From Alphaproteobacteria bacterium (GTDB lineage: Bacteria; Pseudomonadota; Alphaproteobacteria; Kiloniellales; DSM-21159), in contig JAUILQ010000019.1 of NCBI GenBank assembly GCA_030433005.1, positions 1 to 64,000 on the forward strand: a stretch of DNA of 64,000 bases, given 5' to 3'. How positions within the stretch are numbered: position 1 is the first letter of the stretch; every line of letters starts with the position of its first letter. A program made the position numbers and the translations under genes. Under the pieces are notes generated by a model. That model did not search any database. It was not told the DNA's origin and saw only the letters and a program-made list of their open reading frames with translations. This document shows positions 14,128 to 23,674 of this stretch, one piece after another.

Positions 14128-15321
14128 CTAGACCACGTTGCGCTCGACGATCGGGTCGCCCCGCCGGATCCGCTCGTAGCCGAAGCGCGAGAGGTCGAGG
14201 CTGCGCCAGCCGCCGTGCACGATCCACTCCATCAGCCCGCGGCCGACCGCCGGGCTCTGCTGCAGGCCGTGGCCCGAGAAGCCGTTGGCGAAGAGGAAGT
14301 TCGGCAGCTCCGGGTGCGGCCCCAGGATCGCGTTGTGGTCCAGCGTCGAGACGCTGTAGTGGCCGGCCCAAGCGCCGGTCGGCTTGATCGCCTCGAAGGC
14401 CGGCACCCGGTGCGCCAGGCGCGGCCAGATGACCTCCTCGAACGGCGTCCAGTCGACCTCCAGGTCGAGCGTGTCGGGATCCGGCTCGCCCTCCCTCGGC
14501 GCGATGCCGCAGATGAAGCCGCTGCCCTCGGGCCGGACGTAGAGCCCCGAGGGGTCGATGACCAGCGGCATGCCCGGCAGTTCGGCCCGGCAGTCGAAGA
14601 CGAAGACCTGGCGCTTGCGCGGGAAGACCGGCAGCTCGAGGCCGGCCAGGGCGGCGACCTCGCGGGCGCGCGGGCCGGCGGCGTCGACCACCCAGTCGGC
14701 GCTCAGCCGGTCGCCCGAGGCCAGCGTCAGGCCGCTCGCCCGGCCACCTTCGACCGCGATGCCGGTGACCCGGTCCTCGCGGTACTCGGCGCCCAGGCTG
14801 CGCGCCTTGCGCCGGAAGGCCTGGAGCAGCGCGAAGGGGTCGAACCAGCCCTCCATCGACAGGCCCAGGCAGCCGCCGGCCAGGTCGTCGACGTTGAGCC
14901 AGGGCAGGCGTCGCTTCAGCTCGGCCGCCTCGAGCAGGGCGTTGTCCGCGCCAAGCGATTCCTGCAGGGCGCGGTTGTCCTGCAGCACCGGCCAGCCGGC
15001 CTCCCCGGCCAGGAACAGGTAGCCTTTCTCCCGGAAGCCGACGTCCGGGACCTCGCCGTCGACCGCCAGCCAGTCGCCGAGGTTCTTCAGGAAGCGCGCG
15101 CCGAACAGCGAGATCTCGATGTTCTCCCGGGTCGAGAACTGCTGGCGGATCGAGCCGGCCGAGCGGCCGGTCGAGCCCTCCCGGTAGCTGAAGTCGCGCT
15201 CGATGACGACGACGCGACGGCCGGCGAAGGCCGGTTCTGCGGCCAGCCAGTAGGCGATCGAGGAGCCGATCACGCCGCCGCCGACGATCGCCACGTCGCA
15301 ATGCTTGTCGCTGCTGCTCAT
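14128..15321 (-). CDS. FAD-dependent oxidoreductase, DAO family
   Basis: DVAIVGGGVIGSSIAYWLA; EGSTGRSAGSIRQQFSTREN; NGFSGHGLQQSPAVGRGLMEWI. Confidence 0.92.
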   Translation of the reverse strand: MSSSDKHCDVAIVGGGVIGSSIAYWLAAEPAFAGRRVVVIERDFSYREGSTGRSAGSIRQQFSTRENIEISLFGARFLKNLGDWLAVDGEVPDVGFREKGYLFLAGEAGWPVLQDNRALQESLGADNALLEAAELKRRLPWLNVDDLAGGCLGLSMEGWFDPFALLQAFRRKARSLGAEYREDRVTGIAVEGGRASGLTLASGDRLSADWVVDAAGPRAREVAALAGLELPVFPRKRQVFVFDCRAELPGMPLVIDPSGLYVRPEGSGFICGIAPREGEPDPDTLDLEVDWTPFEEVIWPRLAHRVPAFEAIKPTGAWAGHYSVSTLDHNAILGPHPELPNFLFANGFSGHGLQQSPAVGRGLMEWIVHGGWRSLDLSRFGYERIRRGDPIVERNVV

Positions 15322-15519
15322 GGGTCCGCTTGATAGCCGTCCGGCCGGGCCCGACGCCAGCCCTTCGCGCGAAGGACCGGCGCCGTCGCCCGCGCGGAGT
15401 CGCCGGGGATTGCCAGGGCGGGGGCGAACGCGAAACAATGCCGCCATAACAGCGCCCGGTCTGGCCGGGCGGCAGGCAGCCGGCGGGCCATCCGGGCGTC
15501 AACGAAGGACGCAGGGAGG

Positions 15520-17589
15520 ATGGTCATGGCTTCCGGACAGGCTGCTGGCGGACAAGGCGAAGGAGGCCTGGGGGCGGCGCGCTGCGCCGTCCTGGTCGGG
15601 CCCTACACCGCGGGCAAGACCTCGCTGCTCGAGGCGCTGCTGCACCACGCCGGCGCCACGCCGCGCAAGGGCAAGGTGACCGACGGCAACACGGTCGGCG
15701 ACGCCTCGCCGGAGGCGCGGGCGCGACAGATGACCGTCGAGACCAACGTCGCCTCCTGCGACTACCTCGGCGACCGCTGGACCTTCCTCGACTGCCCCGG
15801 CTCGGTCGAGCTCGGCCAGGAGGCGATGTCGACCCTGATGGCGGCCGACGTCGCGATCGTGGTCGCCGAGCCGGAGCCCGAGAAGGCCGTCGCCCTGACG
15901 CCGATCCTGAAGTTCCTCGACGACTGGCAGATCCCGCACCTGGTGTTCGTCAACAAGATGGAGCGGGCGAACGCCCGGGTGCGCGAGATGCTGGCGGCCT
16001 TCCAGGCCGTGTCCAACCGGCCGCTGGTGCTGCGCCAGGTGCCGATCCGCGAGGGCGAGGAGGTCACCGGCTTCGTCGACCTGGTCAGCGAGCGGGCCTG
16101 GCACTACGAGCCCAACAAGCCCTCCTCGCTGGTCGAGATGCCCGAGGCGGTGAAGGAACGCGAGAGCGAGGCGCGGCGCGAGCTGCTGGAGGCGCTCGCC
16201 GACTTCGACGACGCGCTGCTGGAGCAGCTGCTGGAGGACAAGGAGCCGCCGGCCGAGGAGGTCTACGCCCAGCTGACCAAGGACCTGCGCGACGACCTGA
16301 TCGTGCCGCTGCTGTTCGGTTCGGCCGAGCAGGACCACGGCATCCGTCGGCTGTTCAAGGCGCTGCGCCACGAGACGCCCAGCGCCGGGCAGACCGCCGA
16401 GCGGCTCGGCATCCCCCCCGACGAGACCCTGGCGGCGACGGTGGTCAAGACCTTCCATCTGGCGCACACCGGCCGCGTCTCCCTGCTGCGCGTCTGGCAC
16501 GGCACGCTCAAGGAGGGCACGACGATCGGCGGCGTGCGGCCGTCGGGGCTGTTCCGCCTGCAGGGCGGCCAGAGCGAGAAGGCGACGGCCGCCGGGCCGG
16601 GCGAGCTGATCGGCCTGGGCCGCATGGAGGAGCTCCGGACCGGCGACCTGGTGACCTCGGCCGGGCGCGTCGCCGAGCACGGCCTGCCCTGGCCGGCGCC
16701 GCTGTCGCCGGTCTATGCCGTCGCTCTCGAGCCGGCCAAGCGCGAGGACGAGGTCAAGCTGACCGCCTCGATCGCCAAGCTGATCGAGGAGGACCCCTCG
16801 CTGTCGATGGAGCACGACCCCGATGCCAACGAGCTCCGGCTCTGGGGCCAGGGCGAGATCCACCTGCAGATCGCCGCCGAGCGGCTGAAGAGCAAGTACA
16901 ACGTCGAGGTCGCGACGCGCGCGCCGACGCCGGCCTATCGCGAGACCATCCGCAAGGGCACCGAGCACCACGCCCGCCACAAGCGCCAGACCGGCGGCCA
17001 CGGCCAGTTCGCCGACGTCAAGGTGCGCATCGCCCCGACCGCCCGCGGCGAGGGCTTCCGCTTCCACAACGCCGTGGTCGGCGGCGCCATCCCCAAGCAG
17101 TTCATCCCGGCGGTCGAGCACGGCATCCAGGACTACGCAAAGCGGGGCCCGCTCGGCTTCCCGCTCGTCGATTTCGAGGTGACGCTGTTCGACGGCCAGT
17201 TCCACGCGGTCGACTCCTCCGACATGGCCTTCCGCACGGCCGGCCGGCTGGCCATGAGCGAAGCCCTGCCGGACTGCGACCCAGTGCTGCTGGAGCCGAT
17301 CTGCGAGGTCGAGGTCTACGTGCCGAGCGACTTCACCAACCGGGTGCACGGCCTGATCAGCGGGCGGCGCGGCCAAATCCTCGGCTTCGACGCGCGCGAG
17401 GGCTGGCCCGGCTGGGACGAGGTCAAGGCGCACCTGCCGCAGGCCGAGCTGCTCGACCTGATCGTCGAGCTGCGCTCGCTGACCCAGGGCGTCGGCAGCT
17501 TCGCCTGGCGCCACGACCACCTGCAGGAGCTGCACGGCAAGCTGGCCGACAAGGTGGTCGAGCAGCACCGCGCCGAGGCCGCCCAGTAG
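15520..17589 (+). CDS. elongation factor G-like GTPase (EF-G paralogue)
   Basis: GPYTAGKTSL P-loop, DCPGS, NKMER, RQTGGHGQFADVKV; full EF-G architecture with divergent G1 loop. Confidence 0.9.
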   Translation: MVMASGQAAGGQGEGGLGAARCAVLVGPYTAGKTSLLEALLHHAGATPRKGKVTDGNTVGDASPEARARQMTVETNVASCDYLGDRWTFLDCPGSVELGQEAMSTLMAADVAIVVAEPEPEKAVALTPILKFLDDWQIPHLVFVNKMERANARVREMLAAFQAVSNRPLVLRQVPIREGEEVTGFVDLVSERAWHYEPNKPSSLVEMPEAVKERESEARRELLEALADFDDALLEQLLEDKEPPAEEVYAQLTKDLRDDLIVPLLFGSAEQDHGIRRLFKALRHETPSAGQTAERLGIPPDETLAATVVKTFHLAHTGRVSLLRVWHGTLKEGTTIGGVRPSGLFRLQGGQSEKATAAGPGELIGLGRMEELRTGDLVTSAGRVAEHGLPWPAPLSPVYAVALEPAKREDEVKLTASIAKLIEEDPSLSMEHDPDANELRLWGQGEIHLQIAAERLKSKYNVEVATRAPTPAYRETIRKGTEHHARHKRQTGGHGQFADVKVRIAPTARGEGFRFHNAVVGGAIPKQFIPAVEHGIQDYAKRGPLGFPLVDFEVTLFDGQFHAVDSSDMAFRTAGRLAMSEALPDCDPVLLEPICEVEVYVPSDFTNRVHGLISGRRGQILGFDAREGWPGWDEVKAHLPQAELLDLIVELRSLTQGVGSFAWRHDHLQELHGKLADKVVEQHRAEAAQ

Positions 17590-17638
17590 GCGGCCGGCGC
17601 CCCCGTCGACGGGCGGGCGAGGCGGCTTCGGACAAAGA

Positions 17639-17653
17639 TTGGAATTTTTCCAA
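17639..17653. promoter_or_regulatory. TTGGAA-TTT-TTCCAA inverted repeat upstream of dps
   Basis: Perfect 6-bp inverted repeat with 3-nt spacer in the dps upstream region. Confidence 0.45.
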
Positions 17654-17737
17654 AGAACCTTGTAAGCGCATCTTTTAAGGCCATCTCTCCTTCATGAGAC
17701 GCGTCGAGCGTCGGACGAGATGAAAGGAGACGAGGTC

Positions 17738-18205
17738 ATGTCGCTGAACACAGGTATCGCGGCCGAGGACCGCAAGGTCATCGCGGAGGGGCTGTCCAAG
17801 GTTCTGGCCGACAGCTATACGCTGTACCTCAAGACCCACAACTTCCACTGGAACGTCACCGGCCCGGGCTTCCCGCAGCTGCACCAGCTGTTCGAGGACC
17901 AGTACACCGGCCTCGCCGCGGCGGTCGACGAGGTCGCCGAGCGGATCCGGATCCTGGGGCACCGCGCGCCCGGCAGCTACAAGGAGTTCGCCAGGCTGGC
18001 GAGCATCGAGGAAGCCGAGGGCGAGCCCAGCGCCAAGGAGATGGTCGAGCAGCTCGCAGCCGACAACGAGGCGGTCGCGCGGACCGCGCGCTCCGTGTTC
18101 CCGGCCGCCGAGAGCGCCCAGGACGAGGCCACGGTCGACCTGCTGACCCAGCGCATGGCGGCGCACGAGAAGGCCGCCTGGATGCTGCGCGCCACGGCCG
18201 GCTGA
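17738..18205 (+). CDS. dps: Dps/ferritin-like DNA-binding starvation protein
   Basis: YTLYLKTHNFHWNVTGPGFPQLHQLFEDQY; typical Dps. Confidence 0.95.
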   Translation: MSLNTGIAAEDRKVIAEGLSKVLADSYTLYLKTHNFHWNVTGPGFPQLHQLFEDQYTGLAAAVDEVAERIRILGHRAPGSYKEFARLASIEEAEGEPSAKEMVEQLAADNEAVARTARSVFPAAESAQDEATVDLLTQRMAAHEKAAWMLRATAG

Positions 18206-18331
18206 TCTAGACTCCGCGTCGCGGGAAGGCCGTCGCGCCTTTCCGCAGGGACGGACGGCCTGCGGCGGCCGGGCGAGGCCCGAGCCGCCGCCGTGCCGTC
18301 GGCTGTGCGCCGCTAGAGGGGGAGTTGGGCC

Positions 18332-19159
18332 TTGGAGGTTTCGGAGATCGTCCTGCGCGGCGGGTTGGGCAGCCTGCTCGCCGGCATGGGAACCGGCCTG
18401 GGCGCGCTGCCGATCTTCTTCCTGCGCCGGATGAGTCCGGCGGTGGAGACGACCCTGCTGTCCCTCGCCGCCGGCATCATGCTGGCCGCCGCCGCCTTCT
18501 CGCTGCTCATTCCCGGTCTCGAGGCGGCCGAGATGCGCGGCTACGGCAGCCGTGTCGCCACCCTGATCATCGCCGCCGCCGTGCTCGCCGGCGGCGGCTT
18601 CTTCTGGCTCGCCCACCATTTCCTGCCGCACGAGCACTTCGTGAAAGGCCGCGAGGGCCCGGAAAGCGGAAGCGCGCCGCCCGCGCCGGCGGCCGGACTC
18701 GCCGGACCCGACGCGACGACGATCCGCCGGCTCTGGCTGTTCATCGTCGCGATCTGCCTGCACAACTTCCCCGAGGGGCTGGCGGTCGGCGCCGGCTTCG
18801 GCCAGGACGACCTGGGTGCCTCGATCGCCCTGGCGCTCGGCATCGCGATCCAGAACATGCCCGAGGGCTTCATCGTGGCGGCCGCCCTGGTCGCGCTCGG
18901 CTACGGCGTGCGCCTGTCGTTCTGGCTAGCCCTGCTGACCGGCCTGATCGAGCCGGTCGGCGGTCTGGTCGGCGCCGCGGCCGTGGCCCTGGTACAGCCG
19001 GCGCTGCCCTGGGCCCTGGGCCTGGCGGCGGGTGCGATGATCTTCGTCGTCGCCGGCGAGATGATTCCCGAGACCCACCGCAAGGGCTTCGAGAGCCGGG
19101 CGACCATCGGCCTGCTCTGCGGCTTCGCCCTGATGCTCATGCTCGACGGGCTGATCTGA
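18332..19159 (+). CDS. ZIP family metal transporter
   Basis: HNFPEGLAVGAGFG; NMPEGFIVAAAL; TTG start after GGGGGAG. Confidence 0.92.
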   Translation: MEVSEIVLRGGLGSLLAGMGTGLGALPIFFLRRMSPAVETTLLSLAAGIMLAAAAFSLLIPGLEAAEMRGYGSRVATLIIAAAVLAGGGFFWLAHHFLPHEHFVKGREGPESGSAPPAPAAGLAGPDATTIRRLWLFIVAICLHNFPEGLAVGAGFGQDDLGASIALALGIAIQNMPEGFIVAAALVALGYGVRLSFWLALLTGLIEPVGGLVGAAAVALVQPALPWALGLAAGAMIFVVAGEMIPETHRKGFESRATIGLLCGFALMLMLDGLI

Positions 19160-19284
19160 GCGCGTCCCGGCCGAGAAGGTCGGCTCCGGGGGCTTGTCAC
19201 CTCCGTCGGCTTCGCTACCTTGGCGTCGGCGCCCGTCAGAAGGCGCCCGGAACCAATGCCTGTCGAGAAAGGGAAGACCCAAGC

Positions 19285-19581
19285 ATGTCCAGCGAAGGCC
19301 TGCACGCCCCGCGCGAGCGACTGTCCAAGAAGACCCTGACGATGCACCACGCCATCGTCTCCCTGATGGAGGAGATGGAAGCGGTCGACTGGTACCAGCA
19401 GCGTGCCGACGACTGCGAGGACGAGGCGCTCAAGGACATCCTGCTCCACAACATGCGCGAGGAGATGGAGCACGCGGTGATGGTCCTGGAGTGGATGCGC
19501 CGCAACAACGAGGACTTCGCGGGCATGCTCAAGGAGTACCTCTACACAGAGGGCGATATCGCCCACCACGACCACGACTAG
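19285..19581 (+). CDS. EncFtn-like (encapsulated-ferritin family) ferritin-like protein, 98 aa, no cargo-loading tail
   Basis: HHAIVSLMEEMEAVDWYQQRADDCEDEALKDILLHNMREEMEHAVMVLEWMRRNNEDFAGMLKEYLYTEG resembles R. rubrum EncFtn; ends GDIAHHDHD*. Confidence 0.85.
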   Translation: MSSEGLHAPRERLSKKTLTMHHAIVSLMEEMEAVDWYQQRADDCEDEALKDILLHNMREEMEHAVMVLEWMRRNNEDFAGMLKEYLYTEGDIAHHDHD

Positions 19582-19605
19582 GCGGCCGCGCCGCTCCCCT
19601 CTCTC

Positions 19606-20955
19606 ATGACCGGACGAGACGAGAAGCCGGCGGGCGCGCTCGCCGAGCGCGCTCATGCCGTGCTCACGGGCCAGGATTCGCTGGACCGCGCCTGCCGCGA
19701 GATTCCCGACAACGACTGCACGGCGCTGCCGCGCAACTTCCTGCTGAATGCCGCGAACGGCGCCTGTACCAAGCTGGCCGAGCAGCTGGCCAGCCCGGGG
19801 CTGGTGCTCGCCTGGCTGCTCGCCGGGGTCGGCGCGCCGGCGCTGCTGGTCGGCCTGCTGATGCCGGTGCGCCAGGCCGGCGCGCTGCTGCCTCAGCTCG
19901 CCCTGGCCGCGCGGATCCGCGCCCTGGCCCGGCGCAAGTGGGTGTGGGCCGGCGCCGGCCTGGTCCAGGCGCTGGCGCTGGCCGCGATGATCCCCTGCGT
20001 GCTGCTGCTCGACGGCGGCGCCGCCGGCCTGGCGGTGCTCGCGCTGCTCGCCGTCTTCTCGGTCGCCAGCGGCCTCGGATCGGTCGCCTTCCAGGACGTC
20101 ACCGGCAAGACCGTGCCGAAGGGCCAGCGCGGCCGGCTGCTGGCCGTGCGCGCCTCGATCGGCGGCGGGCTGACGCTGCTCGCCGCGGTCCTGCTGCGCC
20201 TCCAGCTCGGTCCCGACGCGGGCCTGGCGCCGCTGCTCTGGCTGCTCGTCGCGGCGGCGCTGCTGTGGGCCCTGGCCAGCCTGCTGTTCGCCGCGGTCGC
20301 CGAGCGGCGCGGCGCGACCGAGGGCGGCCGCTCGACCTGGCAGGAAGCGCGCGCCGCCGTCGGCCTCGCCGGCCGGGTGCCGGCGTACCAGCGCTACCTG
20401 GCGGTCCGCGCCCTGCTGCTCTCGGTCGAGGTCGCGATGCCGTTCTTCGTCCTGCACGCCCAGGCGAGCTTCAGCGACGCCGCGGGCCTGCTGCTCGTCT
20501 TCGTCGTCGCGGTCGGCCTCGCCAACGTGCTGTCGAGCCCGCTCTGGGGCAAGCTGTCCGACGAGCGCGCGAGCCGGGTGCTGGCCGCGGGCGGCGCCGT
20601 CGGGGCACTGGCCGCGCTGGCGGCGCTGGCCATCGCGGCCGCCGGGCTGCCGGCCTGGAGCTACGCGGCCGCCTTCTTCCTGCTCGGGCTCGCCGAAGCC
20701 GGCGTGCGCCTCGGCCGCAAGACCTACCTGGTCGACGCCGCGCCCGAGGACGAGCGTCCCGCCTACGTCGCCTTCTCCAACACGGCTGTCGGCCTGCTCG
20801 CCCTGGCCGCCGGCGCGCTCGGCCTGATCGCCGACCTGGCCAGCCCGGCCTGGCTGCTCGCGACCACCGCGGGCCTGGCGGCGCTCGGCGCCCTGGCCGC
20901 CCTCGGCCTGCCTGGCCCGGAGCGCTTCCTCGAACAGGCCCGGCGCGCCGGCTGA
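19606..20955 (+). CDS. MFS transporter
   Basis: About 12 hydrophobic helices; SPLWGKLSDERASRVL. Confidence 0.85.
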   Translation: MTGRDEKPAGALAERAHAVLTGQDSLDRACREIPDNDCTALPRNFLLNAANGACTKLAEQLASPGLVLAWLLAGVGAPALLVGLLMPVRQAGALLPQLALAARIRALARRKWVWAGAGLVQALALAAMIPCVLLLDGGAAGLAVLALLAVFSVASGLGSVAFQDVTGKTVPKGQRGRLLAVRASIGGGLTLLAAVLLRLQLGPDAGLAPLLWLLVAAALLWALASLLFAAVAERRGATEGGRSTWQEARAAVGLAGRVPAYQRYLAVRALLLSVEVAMPFFVLHAQASFSDAAGLLLVFVVAVGLANVLSSPLWGKLSDERASRVLAAGGAVGALAALAALAIAAAGLPAWSYAAAFFLLGLAEAGVRLGRKTYLVDAAPEDERPAYVAFSNTAVGLLALAAGALGLIADLASPAWLLATTAGLAALGALAALGLPGPERFLEQARRAG

Positions 20956-21062
20956 GGGACCCTGGCATCCGCTCACGCCGTACCCACGCGGCGCTCGCGC
21001 GCTCTTGATTTCGTCGTGCCCGGCCCGAGCGTTAGGTAGGAGGAAAGCCAAAGGAGCAAGCG

Positions 21063-22043
21063 ATGCTGATCAAGCGCAAACGCGGCTGGGAGCTGCCCGA
21101 GAGCCAGGCGACGCCGGAGTCGGTCTACCTGCAGCGCCGCCGCCTGATGCAGGGCCTGGCGGCCGGACCGCTGCTGCTCGGCGCGGCCGCGCTGGCGGGG
21201 CGCGGCAATCCGCTGGCGGCGGCGACCGGCGACGCGGACCCCTCCGCCGAGCTCTATCCGGTCAAGCAGAACATGCGCTATCGCCTGGACCGCGAGATCA
21301 CCGACGAGTCGCTGGCGACGACCTACAACAATTTCTACGAGTTCGGCTCCTCGAAGAACATCTGGCGCGAGGCGCAGGACCTGCCGATCCGGCCCTGGAG
21401 CGTGGCGATCGGCGGCCTCGTCGAGAAGCCCTTCGAGATCGGCATCGACGAGCTGCTGGCGAAGATGCCGCTCGAGGAGCGGCTCTATCGCCACCGCTGC
21501 GTCGAGGCCTGGTCGATGGCGGTGCCCTGGTCGGGCTTCGCGCTCGGCGAGCTGGTCAAGCTGGCCAAGCCGCTGTCCTCGGCGAAGTACGTGAAGATGG
21601 TCACGCTGGAGGACCGCGACGTGATGTCGGGCCAGCGCGCCGGCTGGTACCCCTGGCCCTACGTCGAGGGCCTGACGATGGCGGAGGCGACCAACGAGCT
21701 GGCGTTCATCGCCACCGGGCTCTACGGCAAGCCGATGCCCAAGCAGAACGGCGCGCCGCTGCGCCTCGCGGTGCCCTGGAAGTACGGCTTCAAGTCGATC
21801 AAGTCGATCGTCGCCTTCGAGTTCACCGAGGAGCGGCCGGTGTCCTTCTGGGAGGAGATCCAGGCCCGCGAGTACGGCTTCTGGGCCAACGTCAACCCGG
21901 AGGTCCCGCACCCGCGCTGGAGCCAGGCGACCGAGCGGGTGCTCGGCACCGACGAGAAGGTGCCGACGCTGCTCTACAACGGCTACGGCGACTACGTCGC
22001 CGGGCTCTACGCCGGCATGGAGGGCGAGAAGCTCTTCATGTAG
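21063..22043 (+). CDS. msrP: protein-methionine-sulfoxide reductase, molybdopterin catalytic subunit
   Basis: Tat-type RRRLMQGLAAGPLLLG; YRHRCVEAWSMAVPWSGF; VPWKYGFKSIKSI. Confidence 0.95.
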   Translation: MLIKRKRGWELPESQATPESVYLQRRRLMQGLAAGPLLLGAAALAGRGNPLAAATGDADPSAELYPVKQNMRYRLDREITDESLATTYNNFYEFGSSKNIWREAQDLPIRPWSVAIGGLVEKPFEIGIDELLAKMPLEERLYRHRCVEAWSMAVPWSGFALGELVKLAKPLSSAKYVKMVTLEDRDVMSGQRAGWYPWPYVEGLTMAEATNELAFIATGLYGKPMPKQNGAPLRLAVPWKYGFKSIKSIVAFEFTEERPVSFWEEIQAREYGFWANVNPEVPHPRWSQATERVLGTDEKVPTLLYNGYGDYVAGLYAGMEGEKLFM

Positions 22044-22051
22044 GCGCGAAT

Positions 22052-22081
22052 CGGCCTCTGCCGCGCGGGCGGCAGAGGCCG
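22052..22081 (+). terminator. GC-rich hairpin after msrP (12-bp perfect stem)
   Basis: CGGCCTCTGCCG-CGCGGG-CGGCAGAGGCCG; no T-tract. Confidence 0.5.
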
Positions 22082-22401
22082 GAACCGCCTCCTGCTTACC
22101 CGAGCCCCGGCAGGCCGGCAAAGCCAATCTTGCCGGGAGCCGCTTCCGGGTCCTGCAACGTGGCGTAGAGGTACCTCTGTACCGTCGATGCCGGGGCTGC
22201 CGGACCGCCGTGGGACCGCCGCCCCTCCAAAGCGAGGGGCGACTCGCCTGGGCAAGAGTAGATCAAGAGTTCCCTTTCGGCGCAAAAATATACCGCTTTG
22301 ACTTCCGGCGCTCAGTTCTAAATCGGCTTGGCATGGGCGCGAGACGCCCTGGGGCTTTGGGGGAACGAACCATCTTCGATGCACCGAAAGGAGCACCCAC
22401 G

Positions 22402-23100
22402 ATGCGTAAGTTCCTTCTCTATACTTCCGCTGCCGCCGGCATGCTCGCCGTCACCGGCGCCGCGCAGGCGCAGCTCTACGTCAACGGCGATCAGCCGGTC
22501 CTGATCGCGGAGACGCCGGCCGAGGCGACCACCATGGCGCCGAGCGGCCCGGAGGTCGACGTCTACGACACGACGACCGCCGATCCGCGCGTCTCCGAGG
22601 CGATGGTCGAGCCGTACCTGCCGCAGGTGCACGGCGGCCAGCCGCAGTGGCCGACCGAGGACGTGGTCGGCGACACCGCGCCGCACCCGCTGTTCATCGA
22701 GATCGCGGAGCGTCCGGAGCCGGCGCCGCAGGTCGCCGCCACGCCGGAGCCGGCCCCCGAGCCGGAGGCGCTGCGCAGCAAGATCTACTTCGAGTTCGAC
22801 GAGGCGACGCTGACCCCCGAGGGCCGCGCCAAGGTCGACGAGCTGGTCGCGGTCATGCGCAACTGGGACCTCGACGACGTCGAGATCGCCGGCCACGCCG
22901 ACCGCTCGGGGCCGCGGGCCTACAACGAGGACCTGTCCCGCGCCCGCGCACAGACGGTCGCAGACGCCTTCACCGCCCAGGGCATGAACCCGGTGATCCT
23001 GGAGACCGAGTGGTACGGCGAGCGGCGTCCGGCGGTGCCGACCGCCGACGGCGTGCGCCTGCAGGAGAACCGTCGCGTCGAGGTCGAGGCCGTCGAGTAA
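22402..23100 (+). CDS. OmpA family outer membrane protein
   Basis: Signal peptide; IYFEFDEATLTPEGRAKVDELV...IAGHADRSGPRAYNEDLSRARAQTV. Confidence 0.93.
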   Translation: MRKFLLYTSAAAGMLAVTGAAQAQLYVNGDQPVLIAETPAEATTMAPSGPEVDVYDTTTADPRVSEAMVEPYLPQVHGGQPQWPTEDVVGDTAPHPLFIEIAERPEPAPQVAATPEPAPEPEALRSKIYFEFDEATLTPEGRAKVDELVAVMRNWDLDDVEIAGHADRSGPRAYNEDLSRARAQTVADAFTAQGMNPVILETEWYGERRPAVPTADGVRLQENRRVEVEAVE

Positions 23101-23126
23101 CGGTCCTCGCCCGACCAAGGCGACAC

Positions 23127-23158
23127 AAGGGGCCGTCCTTCGGGGCGGCCCCTTTTTC
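23127..23158 (+). terminator. intrinsic terminator of the OmpA gene
   Basis: AGGGGCCGTCC-TTCG-GGGCGGCCCCT followed by TTTT. Confidence 0.85.
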
Positions 23159-23222
23159 TTGCGCGTCGGCAGGGCGGCACGTCGGCGCGGGACGACGCTT
23201 CGCTCGACGGCCCATCGCGGCC

Positions 23223-23253
23223 AAAAAAAAATGCCGGGCCACGAGGGCCCGGC
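23223..23253 (-). terminator. strong intrinsic terminator on the minus strand
   Basis: Plus strand AAAAAAAAATGCCGGGCCACGAGGGCCCGGCA, i.e. minus-strand hairpin followed by T-tract. Confidence 0.85.
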
Positions 23254-23360
23254 AAGTTGAACAGGGAGGCTTCACGTCTGGGAGACGTCGGGGCCGCCGT
23301 AGCGGTCCCGTCGGGGCGCAGATCGCGATCGGGGGGAGAGAGATCGCGCCCCTCGGAGAT
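23223..23360 (-). ncRNA. candidate trans-acting sRNA, AbcR/CU-rich-loop type (5' end not determined)
   Basis: Minus strand: GGGGCGC-GATC-TCTCTCCCCCC-GATC stem-loop, ACGTCT-CCC-AGACGT hairpin, single-stranded GAAGCCTCCCTGTTCAACT, then TGCCGGGCC-CTCG-TGGCCCGGCA plus T9 terminator; downstream of a VtlR/LsrB-like gene. Confidence 0.55.
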
Positions 23361-23674
23361 GCGCCGCGTGTTGCGACGCAACATCCTCTGAACGGAAAAT
23401 GGCGCCGGAAGGTTCCCCTGTCGAGTTGCAAGAGGGCAGTGGTGGCATGCCGTTGTTGCATGGCTACACCGCCGTAGCAATTTTGCAACAGGCCTTGGGC
23501 CGGCCGGCCCCCGTCTCGCGGGAAGCCGAGCCCCTGTCCGCCGTTGCGGCTCGGAATCCTATCCTATGCTGTGGCGCCGAGGGCGCAGTGCCGTGCGCCC
23601 GGTTGGTCGCTCCGCGTGCGCGACGGCAACCCTGGCGGGCAATTCGCCCGTGCCGCCCGCCACGGCGGCGGCGC

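What the first reader, a model, noticed from the sequence alone, without database searches (positions are those of the whole stretch)
19285..19581. Stand-alone EncFtn-like ferritin lacking an encapsulin partner and cargo tail
The ORF keeps the residues of the EncFtn ferroxidase interface (MEEMEAVDWY, EEMEH) and the EncFtn length. It ends right after the EncFtn fold in GDIAHHDHD, with no encapsulin-targeting peptide, and the next gene is an MFS transporter, not an encapsulin shell. It is clustered with Dps and a ZIP metal transporter. It may be a free-standing ferroxidase handing iron to Dps, or one with a His/Asp-rich metal-binding tail, distinct from the described encapsulated nanocompartment.
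Basis: partly seen in the sequence, partly recalled or inferred. Interest (0 to 1): 0.7.

Follow-up and report, generated by a model that had tools for sequence, protein, structure and literature searches.

The report
Shell-less encapsulated-ferritin-type ferroxidase gene
A small iron-oxidising protein, normally known as the cargo of a protein nanocompartment, is made here without the compartment; the same is true of most of its alphaproteobacterial relatives, so it is an ordinary member of a recognised but functionally untested group rather than a broken or unique gene.

Summary
The ORF at 19285-19581 (98 aa) is a genuine EncFtn-type ferritin-like protein (PF22277, E 2e-37), 53-55% identical to the solved R. 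rubrum, H. ochraceum and N. europaea proteins, with every known ferroxidase residue kept. It has no cargo peptide, and no family 1 encapsulin was found in its genome (94% complete). It is not a truncation: its 20 closest relatives (77-90% identical) all lack the cargo peptide too. Among 389 near-complete alphaproteobacterial genomes, 64 carry EncFtn; 46 have no detectable encapsulin, and in the other 18 an EncFtn gene lies beside the encapsulin. Among 141 loci, cargo peptide and neighbouring encapsulin coincide: 26 of 26 with, 0 of 115 without. The class is already named ('Non-EncFtn' 2016; 's-FLP' 2024), but the 2024 review left its encapsulation open; this survey says it is generally not encapsulated. 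The dps-zip-EncFtn cluster is confined to one family, so it hardly supports iron hand-over to Dps. His-ended tails are common in the class (87 of 128) but absent in the sister Tistlia protein. Best reading: a free cytosolic ferroxidase or iron buffer, with storage left to Bfr/Dps. New member of a known kind.

The parts
19285..19581 (+). Shell-less EncFtn-type ferritin-like protein, 98 aa (s-FLP / Non-EncFtn class)
   Evidence: PF22277 127 bits, E 2.1e-37; TIGR04535 101.6 bits, below its cut-off of 125; PDB 5n5f, 5da5, 3k6c
19369..19395 (+). Codons for E29-Y37 (EEMEAVDWY): ferroxidase ligand E30 (R. rubrum E32), entry-site E29/E32 (E31/E34), W36/Y37 (W38/Y39)
   Evidence: alignment with 5da5; E29, E30 and Y37 invariant in 161 aligned proteins, E32 and W36 nearly so
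19447..19473 (+). Codons for H55-H63 (HNMREEMEH): ferroxidase ligands E60/H63 (E62/H65) and outer-ring metal site H55/E59/E62 (H57/E61/E64)
   Evidence: site definitions from PMC5012862
19564..19578 (+). C-terminal HHDHD tail, in place of an encapsulin cargo peptide
   Evidence: class statistics
19193..19221 (+). Promoter-like block CTTGTCACCTCCGTCGGCTTCGCTACCTT conserved upstream of EncFtn in Tistlia consotensis, where a different gene (dps) lies upstream; suggests EncFtn has its own promoter
   Evidence: a strict sigma-70 consensus scan found nothing
15520..17589 (+). Elongation factor G paralogue, widely shared upstream neighbour
   Evidence: in 11 other short-form loci and 1 cargo-type locus
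17738..18205 (+). Dps
   Evidence: PF00210
18332..19159 (+). ZIP-family metal transporter
   Evidence: PF02535
19606..20955 (+). MFS transporter
   Evidence: PF07690
21063..22043 (+). MsrP, protein-methionine-sulfoxide reductase catalytic subunit; shared neighbour
   Evidence: NF003767, 427 bits; in 11 other short-form loci

Best explanation
The gene encodes a soluble EncFtn-type ferroxidase that works without an encapsulin shell. By homology the subunits form an open decameric ring, with a di-iron centre made by E30, E60 and H63 of two subunits. Fe(II) enters past E29/E32, is oxidised, and leaves near the outer-ring site H55/E59/E62, where the short, often His/Asp-bearing C-terminus also emerges. 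Without a shell it should not mineralise iron, so it acts as a ferroxidase or small iron buffer (about 10-15 Fe per decamer in the R. rubrum homologue) that lowers free Fe(II) or peroxide, and storage falls to the cell's bacterioferritin or Dps. Shown here: family, conserved active site, lack of cargo peptide, lack of a detectable family 1 shell. Inferred: decamer, catalysis, iron exit route, role of the tail, storage partner.
For: Family and fold. Catalytic residues E32, E62, H65, with Y39, invariant in all 161 aligned proteins, shell-less ones included. No PF04454 in the own genome, and none in 46 of 64 EncFtn-bearing alphaproteobacterial genomes, all at least 95% complete apart from the window's own assembly (94.29%) and including the single-contig, 100% complete same-family genome G004. 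Cargo peptide and neighbouring encapsulin coincide: 26 of 26 cargo-type loci, 0 of 115 short loci. Recombinant R. rubrum EncFtn without shell is a ferroxidase, binds 10-15 Fe per decamer and does not mineralise; its C-terminus leaves from the outer circumference (PMC5012862). The short-form N. europaea protein crystallised as a decamer (PMC11202242). The own genome carries bacterioferritin (TIGR00754, 239 bits) and Dps as possible stores.
Against: No short-form protein is reported, in the papers found, as assayed for ferroxidase activity. The assembly is 94% complete in 116 contigs, so absence of encapsulin in this one genome is not absolute. Family 2 encapsulins could not be tested properly: the model used rang in no control genome. 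Of four genomes with a divergent rhizobial short form, two do hold an unlinked encapsulin.
Confidence: 0.7

Rival explanations
1. It is an encapsulin cargo after all: the short tail (IAHHDHD, like LFT..KPIAHE of N. europaea) is an unrecognised targeting peptide for a shell encoded elsewhere.
For: A 2024 review lists LFTD(E/N)KPIAHE as a putative, uncharacterised s-FLP targeting peptide and says encapsulation is sterically possible. Two rhizobial genomes with a divergent short form also hold an unlinked encapsulin.
Against: 46 of 64 EncFtn-bearing alphaproteobacterial genomes have no detectable family 1 encapsulin, and no intact short locus has one next door. In G386, which has both a shell and a short form, the shell sits beside a separate cargo-type copy. 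The tail varies widely, even between the window and its sister species.
Confidence: 0.07
2. A free ferroxidase that hands iron specifically to Dps, encoded next door.
For: dps lies upstream in the window, in T. consotensis (directly adjacent), in G004 and in one other alphaproteobacterium, L085.
Against: 4 of 141 loci, mostly one family, and none of 17 further Pseudomonadota loci. EncFtn appears to have its own promoter-like block. The genome also has bacterioferritin, and Dps carries its own ferroxidase site (general knowledge).
Confidence: 0.1
3. The di-iron centre mainly reduces peroxide or oxygen (detoxification), with iron oxidation as means rather than end.
For: Shared neighbours MsrP and, further on, thioredoxin reductase are redox-repair genes; rubrerythrin-like and Dps di-iron proteins use peroxide (general knowledge).
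Against: The MsrP and EF-G neighbourhood is found in only about a tenth of loci and may be inherited gene order; no direct evidence on oxidant preference.
Confidence: 0.2
4. A degraded cargo gene that lost its peptide and shell and is drifting.
For: L090/G302, in the cargo-type branch, seems to have lost both tail and neighbouring shell, so secondary loss may happen.
Against: Active-site residues are essentially invariant across about 130 short forms, and the 20 closest relatives of the window are all short.
Confidence: 0.02

Closest known systems
Nitrosomonas europaea NE0167 (PDB 3k6c), type member of 's-FLP' / 'Non-EncFtn'
   Same: 95 aa, no cargo peptide, short tail ending in His-containing IAHE, EncFtn fold, about 53% identity to the model
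   Different: Belongs to the other deep EncFtn clade; has Leu where the window has Trp36; tail KPIAHE rather than GDIAHHDHD
Encapsulated ferritin EncFtn of Rhodospirillum rubrum (Rru_A0973, 5da5) and Haliangium ochraceum (5n5f, 7oe2)
   Same: Fold (TM about 0.73), ferroxidase, entry and outer-site residues, about 55% identity
   Different: They carry a disordered linker and the SLGIGSLK cargo peptide and are housed in an encapsulin; Thr instead of an acidic residue at window position 84
Rhodospira/Roseospira cargo-type EncFtn (L095, L097, L108)
   Same: Same deep clade as the window, MSSEGLHAPRERL start, about 70% identity
   Different: Tail ends in FTIGAI and encapsulin follows directly
Dps and bacterioferritin
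   Same: Ferritin superfamily ferroxidases present in the same genome
   Different: Closed cages that store iron; a full four-helix bundle per subunit

Membership tests
EncFtn-like (PF22277) | Match above the curated cut-off | tested here: met
   127.2 bits against cut-off 27
EncFtn-like (PF22277) | Ferroxidase ligands E32, E62, H65 and Y39 (R. rubrum numbering) | tested here: met
   E30, E60, H63, Y37
EncFtn-like (PF22277) | Two long antiparallel helices plus a short third helix | tested here: met
   Model helices 15-43, 47-73, 78-89, mean pLDDT 82.7; Foldseek 5n5f, 5da5, 3k6c
EncFtn-like (PF22277) | Metal-dependent decameric ring | not testable with these tools
   Only single chains can be modelled here
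Encapsulated ferritin (FLP-TP; TIGR04535) | C-terminal cargo-loading peptide | tested here: not met
   Ends GDIAHHDHD; TIGR04535 101.6 bits, below cut-off 125
Encapsulated ferritin (FLP-TP; TIGR04535) | Encapsulin gene adjacent or in the genome | tested here: not met
   No PF04454 in the assembly, control genomes rang; family 2 shells in effect untested
s-FLP / Non-EncFtn | Short EncFtn without linker or cargo peptide | tested here: met
s-FLP / Non-EncFtn | Ferroxidase activity and native oligomeric state in solution | not testable with these tools
   Needs purified protein

The most novel reading that the evidence does not exclude
Shell-less EncFtn is a separate, widespread iron-handling system, the commoner form in Alphaproteobacteria, in which an open ferroxidase ring with an outward, often His/Asp-bearing tail and an acidic residue at position 84 passes iron to soluble partners instead of a shell; shell, cargo peptide and residue 84 switch together in evolution.
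Probability: 0.4. Interest if true: 0.6.

Novelty: new member of a known kind. Interest (0 to 1): 0.35.

Why it matters
The 2024 review left open whether short EncFtns are encapsulated and offered their tail as a putative targeting peptide. The genome survey here argues that they usually are not, because most genomes that carry them have no detectable family 1 shell. It also gives a clean comparative set (cargo-type against shell-less, in two clades) and a candidate residue, position 84, for testing what an open ferroxidase ring does without a storage compartment. For the window itself the gene is an ordinary family member.

Tried and rejected
Truncated cargo gene: rejected, since the 20 closest relatives share the short end. 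Conserved dps-zip-EncFtn operon: rejected outside the window's family. ICE/Irr-like palindrome as regulator of EncFtn: 6 sites in 1.6 Mb of neighbourhood, one upstream of an EncFtn. Rfam elements in 15000-23500: none. Strict sigma-70 promoter scan: none. Family 2 encapsulin: inconclusive, the model rang in no control. Phage-borne copies: none; plasmid-borne copies: 7 distant ones. Test of residue 84 against shell state on independent branches: underpowered, one starred pair, so only the two-clade pattern is reported. Limits: counts are of sampled genomes and related sequences, not independent events. The 141-locus set mixes identity-selected and class-sampled loci, and two of its 's' entries are imperfect: L039 is a frameshifted cargo-type copy beside an encapsulin fragment and L083 is cut at its start; both were left out of the tree. 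Length (118 aa or more) was the sorting rule for cargo type; all 26 so sorted were then seen to carry the motif. Some loci end at contig ends, so 'no encapsulin next door' is weaker for those. Position 84 and the His-tail statistic were found by looking through the data, not predicted beforehand.

Full report
What is there. The ORF 19285-19581 (+, ATG, 98 aa) matches Pfam PF22277 EncFtn-like with 127.2 bits, E 2.1e-37, and NCBIfam TIGR04535 'encapsulin-associated ferritin-like protein' with 101.6 bits, below that model's cut-off of 125. Solved relatives are H. ochraceum 5n5f/7oe2, R. rubrum 5da5 and N. europaea NE0167, 3k6c. An AlphaFold2 monomer (pLDDT 82.7) matches 5n5f, 5da5 and 3k6c in the PDB at TM about 0.7, 53-55% identity.

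Active site. With an offset of +2 the R. rubrum ferroxidase ligands E32, E62 and H65 are E30, E60 and H63; entry-site E31/E34 are E29/E32; the outer-ring site H57/E61/E64 is H55/E59/E62 (site definitions from PMC5012862). In 161 aligned proteins the three ligands and Y39 are invariant; the outer site is kept everywhere except in a divergent rhizobial group and for one E-to-Q change.

No shell. The assembly (5.3 Mb, 94.29% complete, 116 contigs) has no PF04454 encapsulin, while the same search rang in three of 14 control genomes, and one EncFtn gene. In the order, 17 of 63 genomes have EncFtn over the cut-off; of these only G018 has encapsulin matches, one of them a piece next to its second, broken EncFtn copy. 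In 389 alphaproteobacterial genomes drawn evenly from the class, at least 95% complete apart from the window's own assembly (94.29%), which the sample includes, 64 have EncFtn over the cut-off; 18 of these have PF04454, in each case with an EncFtn gene directly beside it, and 46 have none. One genome, G386, holds both a cargo-type copy beside its shell and a separate short copy. A sample of 398 Pseudomonadota, likewise including the window's assembly, gave 24 EncFtn genomes, 19 of them not in the class sample; among these G622 has an adjacent encapsulin and G483 and G501 have an unlinked one.

Tail and shell go together. Among 141 distinct loci, 26 proteins of 122-143 aa end in a recognisable cargo peptide (LGIGSL, FTIG and similar) and 115 are short. 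An encapsulin lies next door in 26 of 26 and 0 of 115. Two of the 115 are imperfect: L039, a frameshifted cargo-type copy beside an encapsulin fragment too short for the test, and L083, cut at its start. The 20 closest relatives found in the species-genome collection (77-90% identical over the matched part) are all short; the first cargo-type one, L063, ranks 21st. The tree falls into two deep clades, each with both forms, and needs 5 to 7 changes between forms; it is poorly resolved and cannot tell gain from loss. The window lies in the clade typed by LHAPRERL, nearest to T. consotensis (87%).

The tail itself. Of 128 short proteins outside the rhizobial group, 87 have His among the last three residues and 44 have at least two His in the tail; of 27 cargo-type proteins none has a His among the last three. 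In R. [quoted passage not shown] this is inference. Against over-reading it, T. consotensis ends GPIATAED and a large group ends in EEEATG-like tails. Position 84 is Thr in 28 of 29 cargo-type proteins and in 6 of 132 short ones, in both clades; phylogenetic independence could not be shown.

Neighbourhood. Window order: EF-G paralogue, dps, zip, EncFtn, MFS, msrP. T. consotensis has EF-G, dps, EncFtn, msrP, without zip or MFS; G004 of the same family appears to have the full set; G012 has EF-G, zip, EncFtn, msrP. EF-G and MsrP neighbours recur in 11 other short loci each, including a second family, f36; Dps recurs in 3 other loci and in none of 17 more. No neighbour is shared by more than about a tenth of short loci, so the gene mostly stands alone. 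A 29-base promoter-like block is conserved upstream between the two Tistlia genomes although the upstream gene differs.

Mechanism. R. rubrum EncFtn without its shell oxidises Fe(II), binds 10-15 Fe per decamer and does not mineralise (PMC5012862). By homology the window protein should do the same, and the genome's bacterioferritin, which has a short neighbouring ORF resembling Bfd, and Dps are the candidate stores. Activity, decamer and partner are not shown here.

Known or new. The class was noted as 'Non-EncFtn' in 2016 and 's-FLP' in 2024; the 2024 review groups it with encapsulated proteins, calls its encapsulation unclear and lists its tail as a putative targeting peptide. NE0167 appeared in only that paper in the library searched, and most subscription papers are not in that library. 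The window gene is a new member of that kind. The added value is the survey, which indicates that short EncFtns generally have no family 1 shell to enter.

Noticed in passing
window 17639-17653: Perfect palindrome TTGGAATTTTTCCAA upstream of dps, resembling an Irr/ICE-type operator; chance expectation 0.01 in the window, but not found in T. consotensis.
   Followed up: partly
L253-L256: Divergent rhizobial EncFtn group (104 aa, 78-80 bits with the session's own profile, no cargo peptide; outer-site H57 to Asn and E64 to Lys); two of four genomes also have an unlinked encapsulin.
   Followed up: partly
L213, L214, L216: A ZIP transporter about 40-43% identical to the window's lies directly upstream of a cargo-type EncFtn plus encapsulin pair, so the ZIP-EncFtn association also occurs in a shelled system.
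   Followed up: no
L090 / G302:C98: EncFtn inside the cargo-type branch that lacks both the cargo tail and a neighbouring encapsulin.
   Followed up: partly
L230 / G397:C29: Encapsulin gene interrupted by a stop codon beside a cargo-type EncFtn.
   Followed up: no
L234 / G000:C16: Bacterioferritin gene of the same genome, with a short neighbouring ORF resembling bacterioferritin-associated ferredoxin; that ORF matched no NCBIfam model.
   Followed up: partly
L046, L075, L081, L084, L086, L100, L121: Close relatives (74-82% over the matched part) in records labelled Planctomycetota, Bacteroidota, Chloroflexota and Myxococcota; horizontal transfer or binning error.
   Followed up: no
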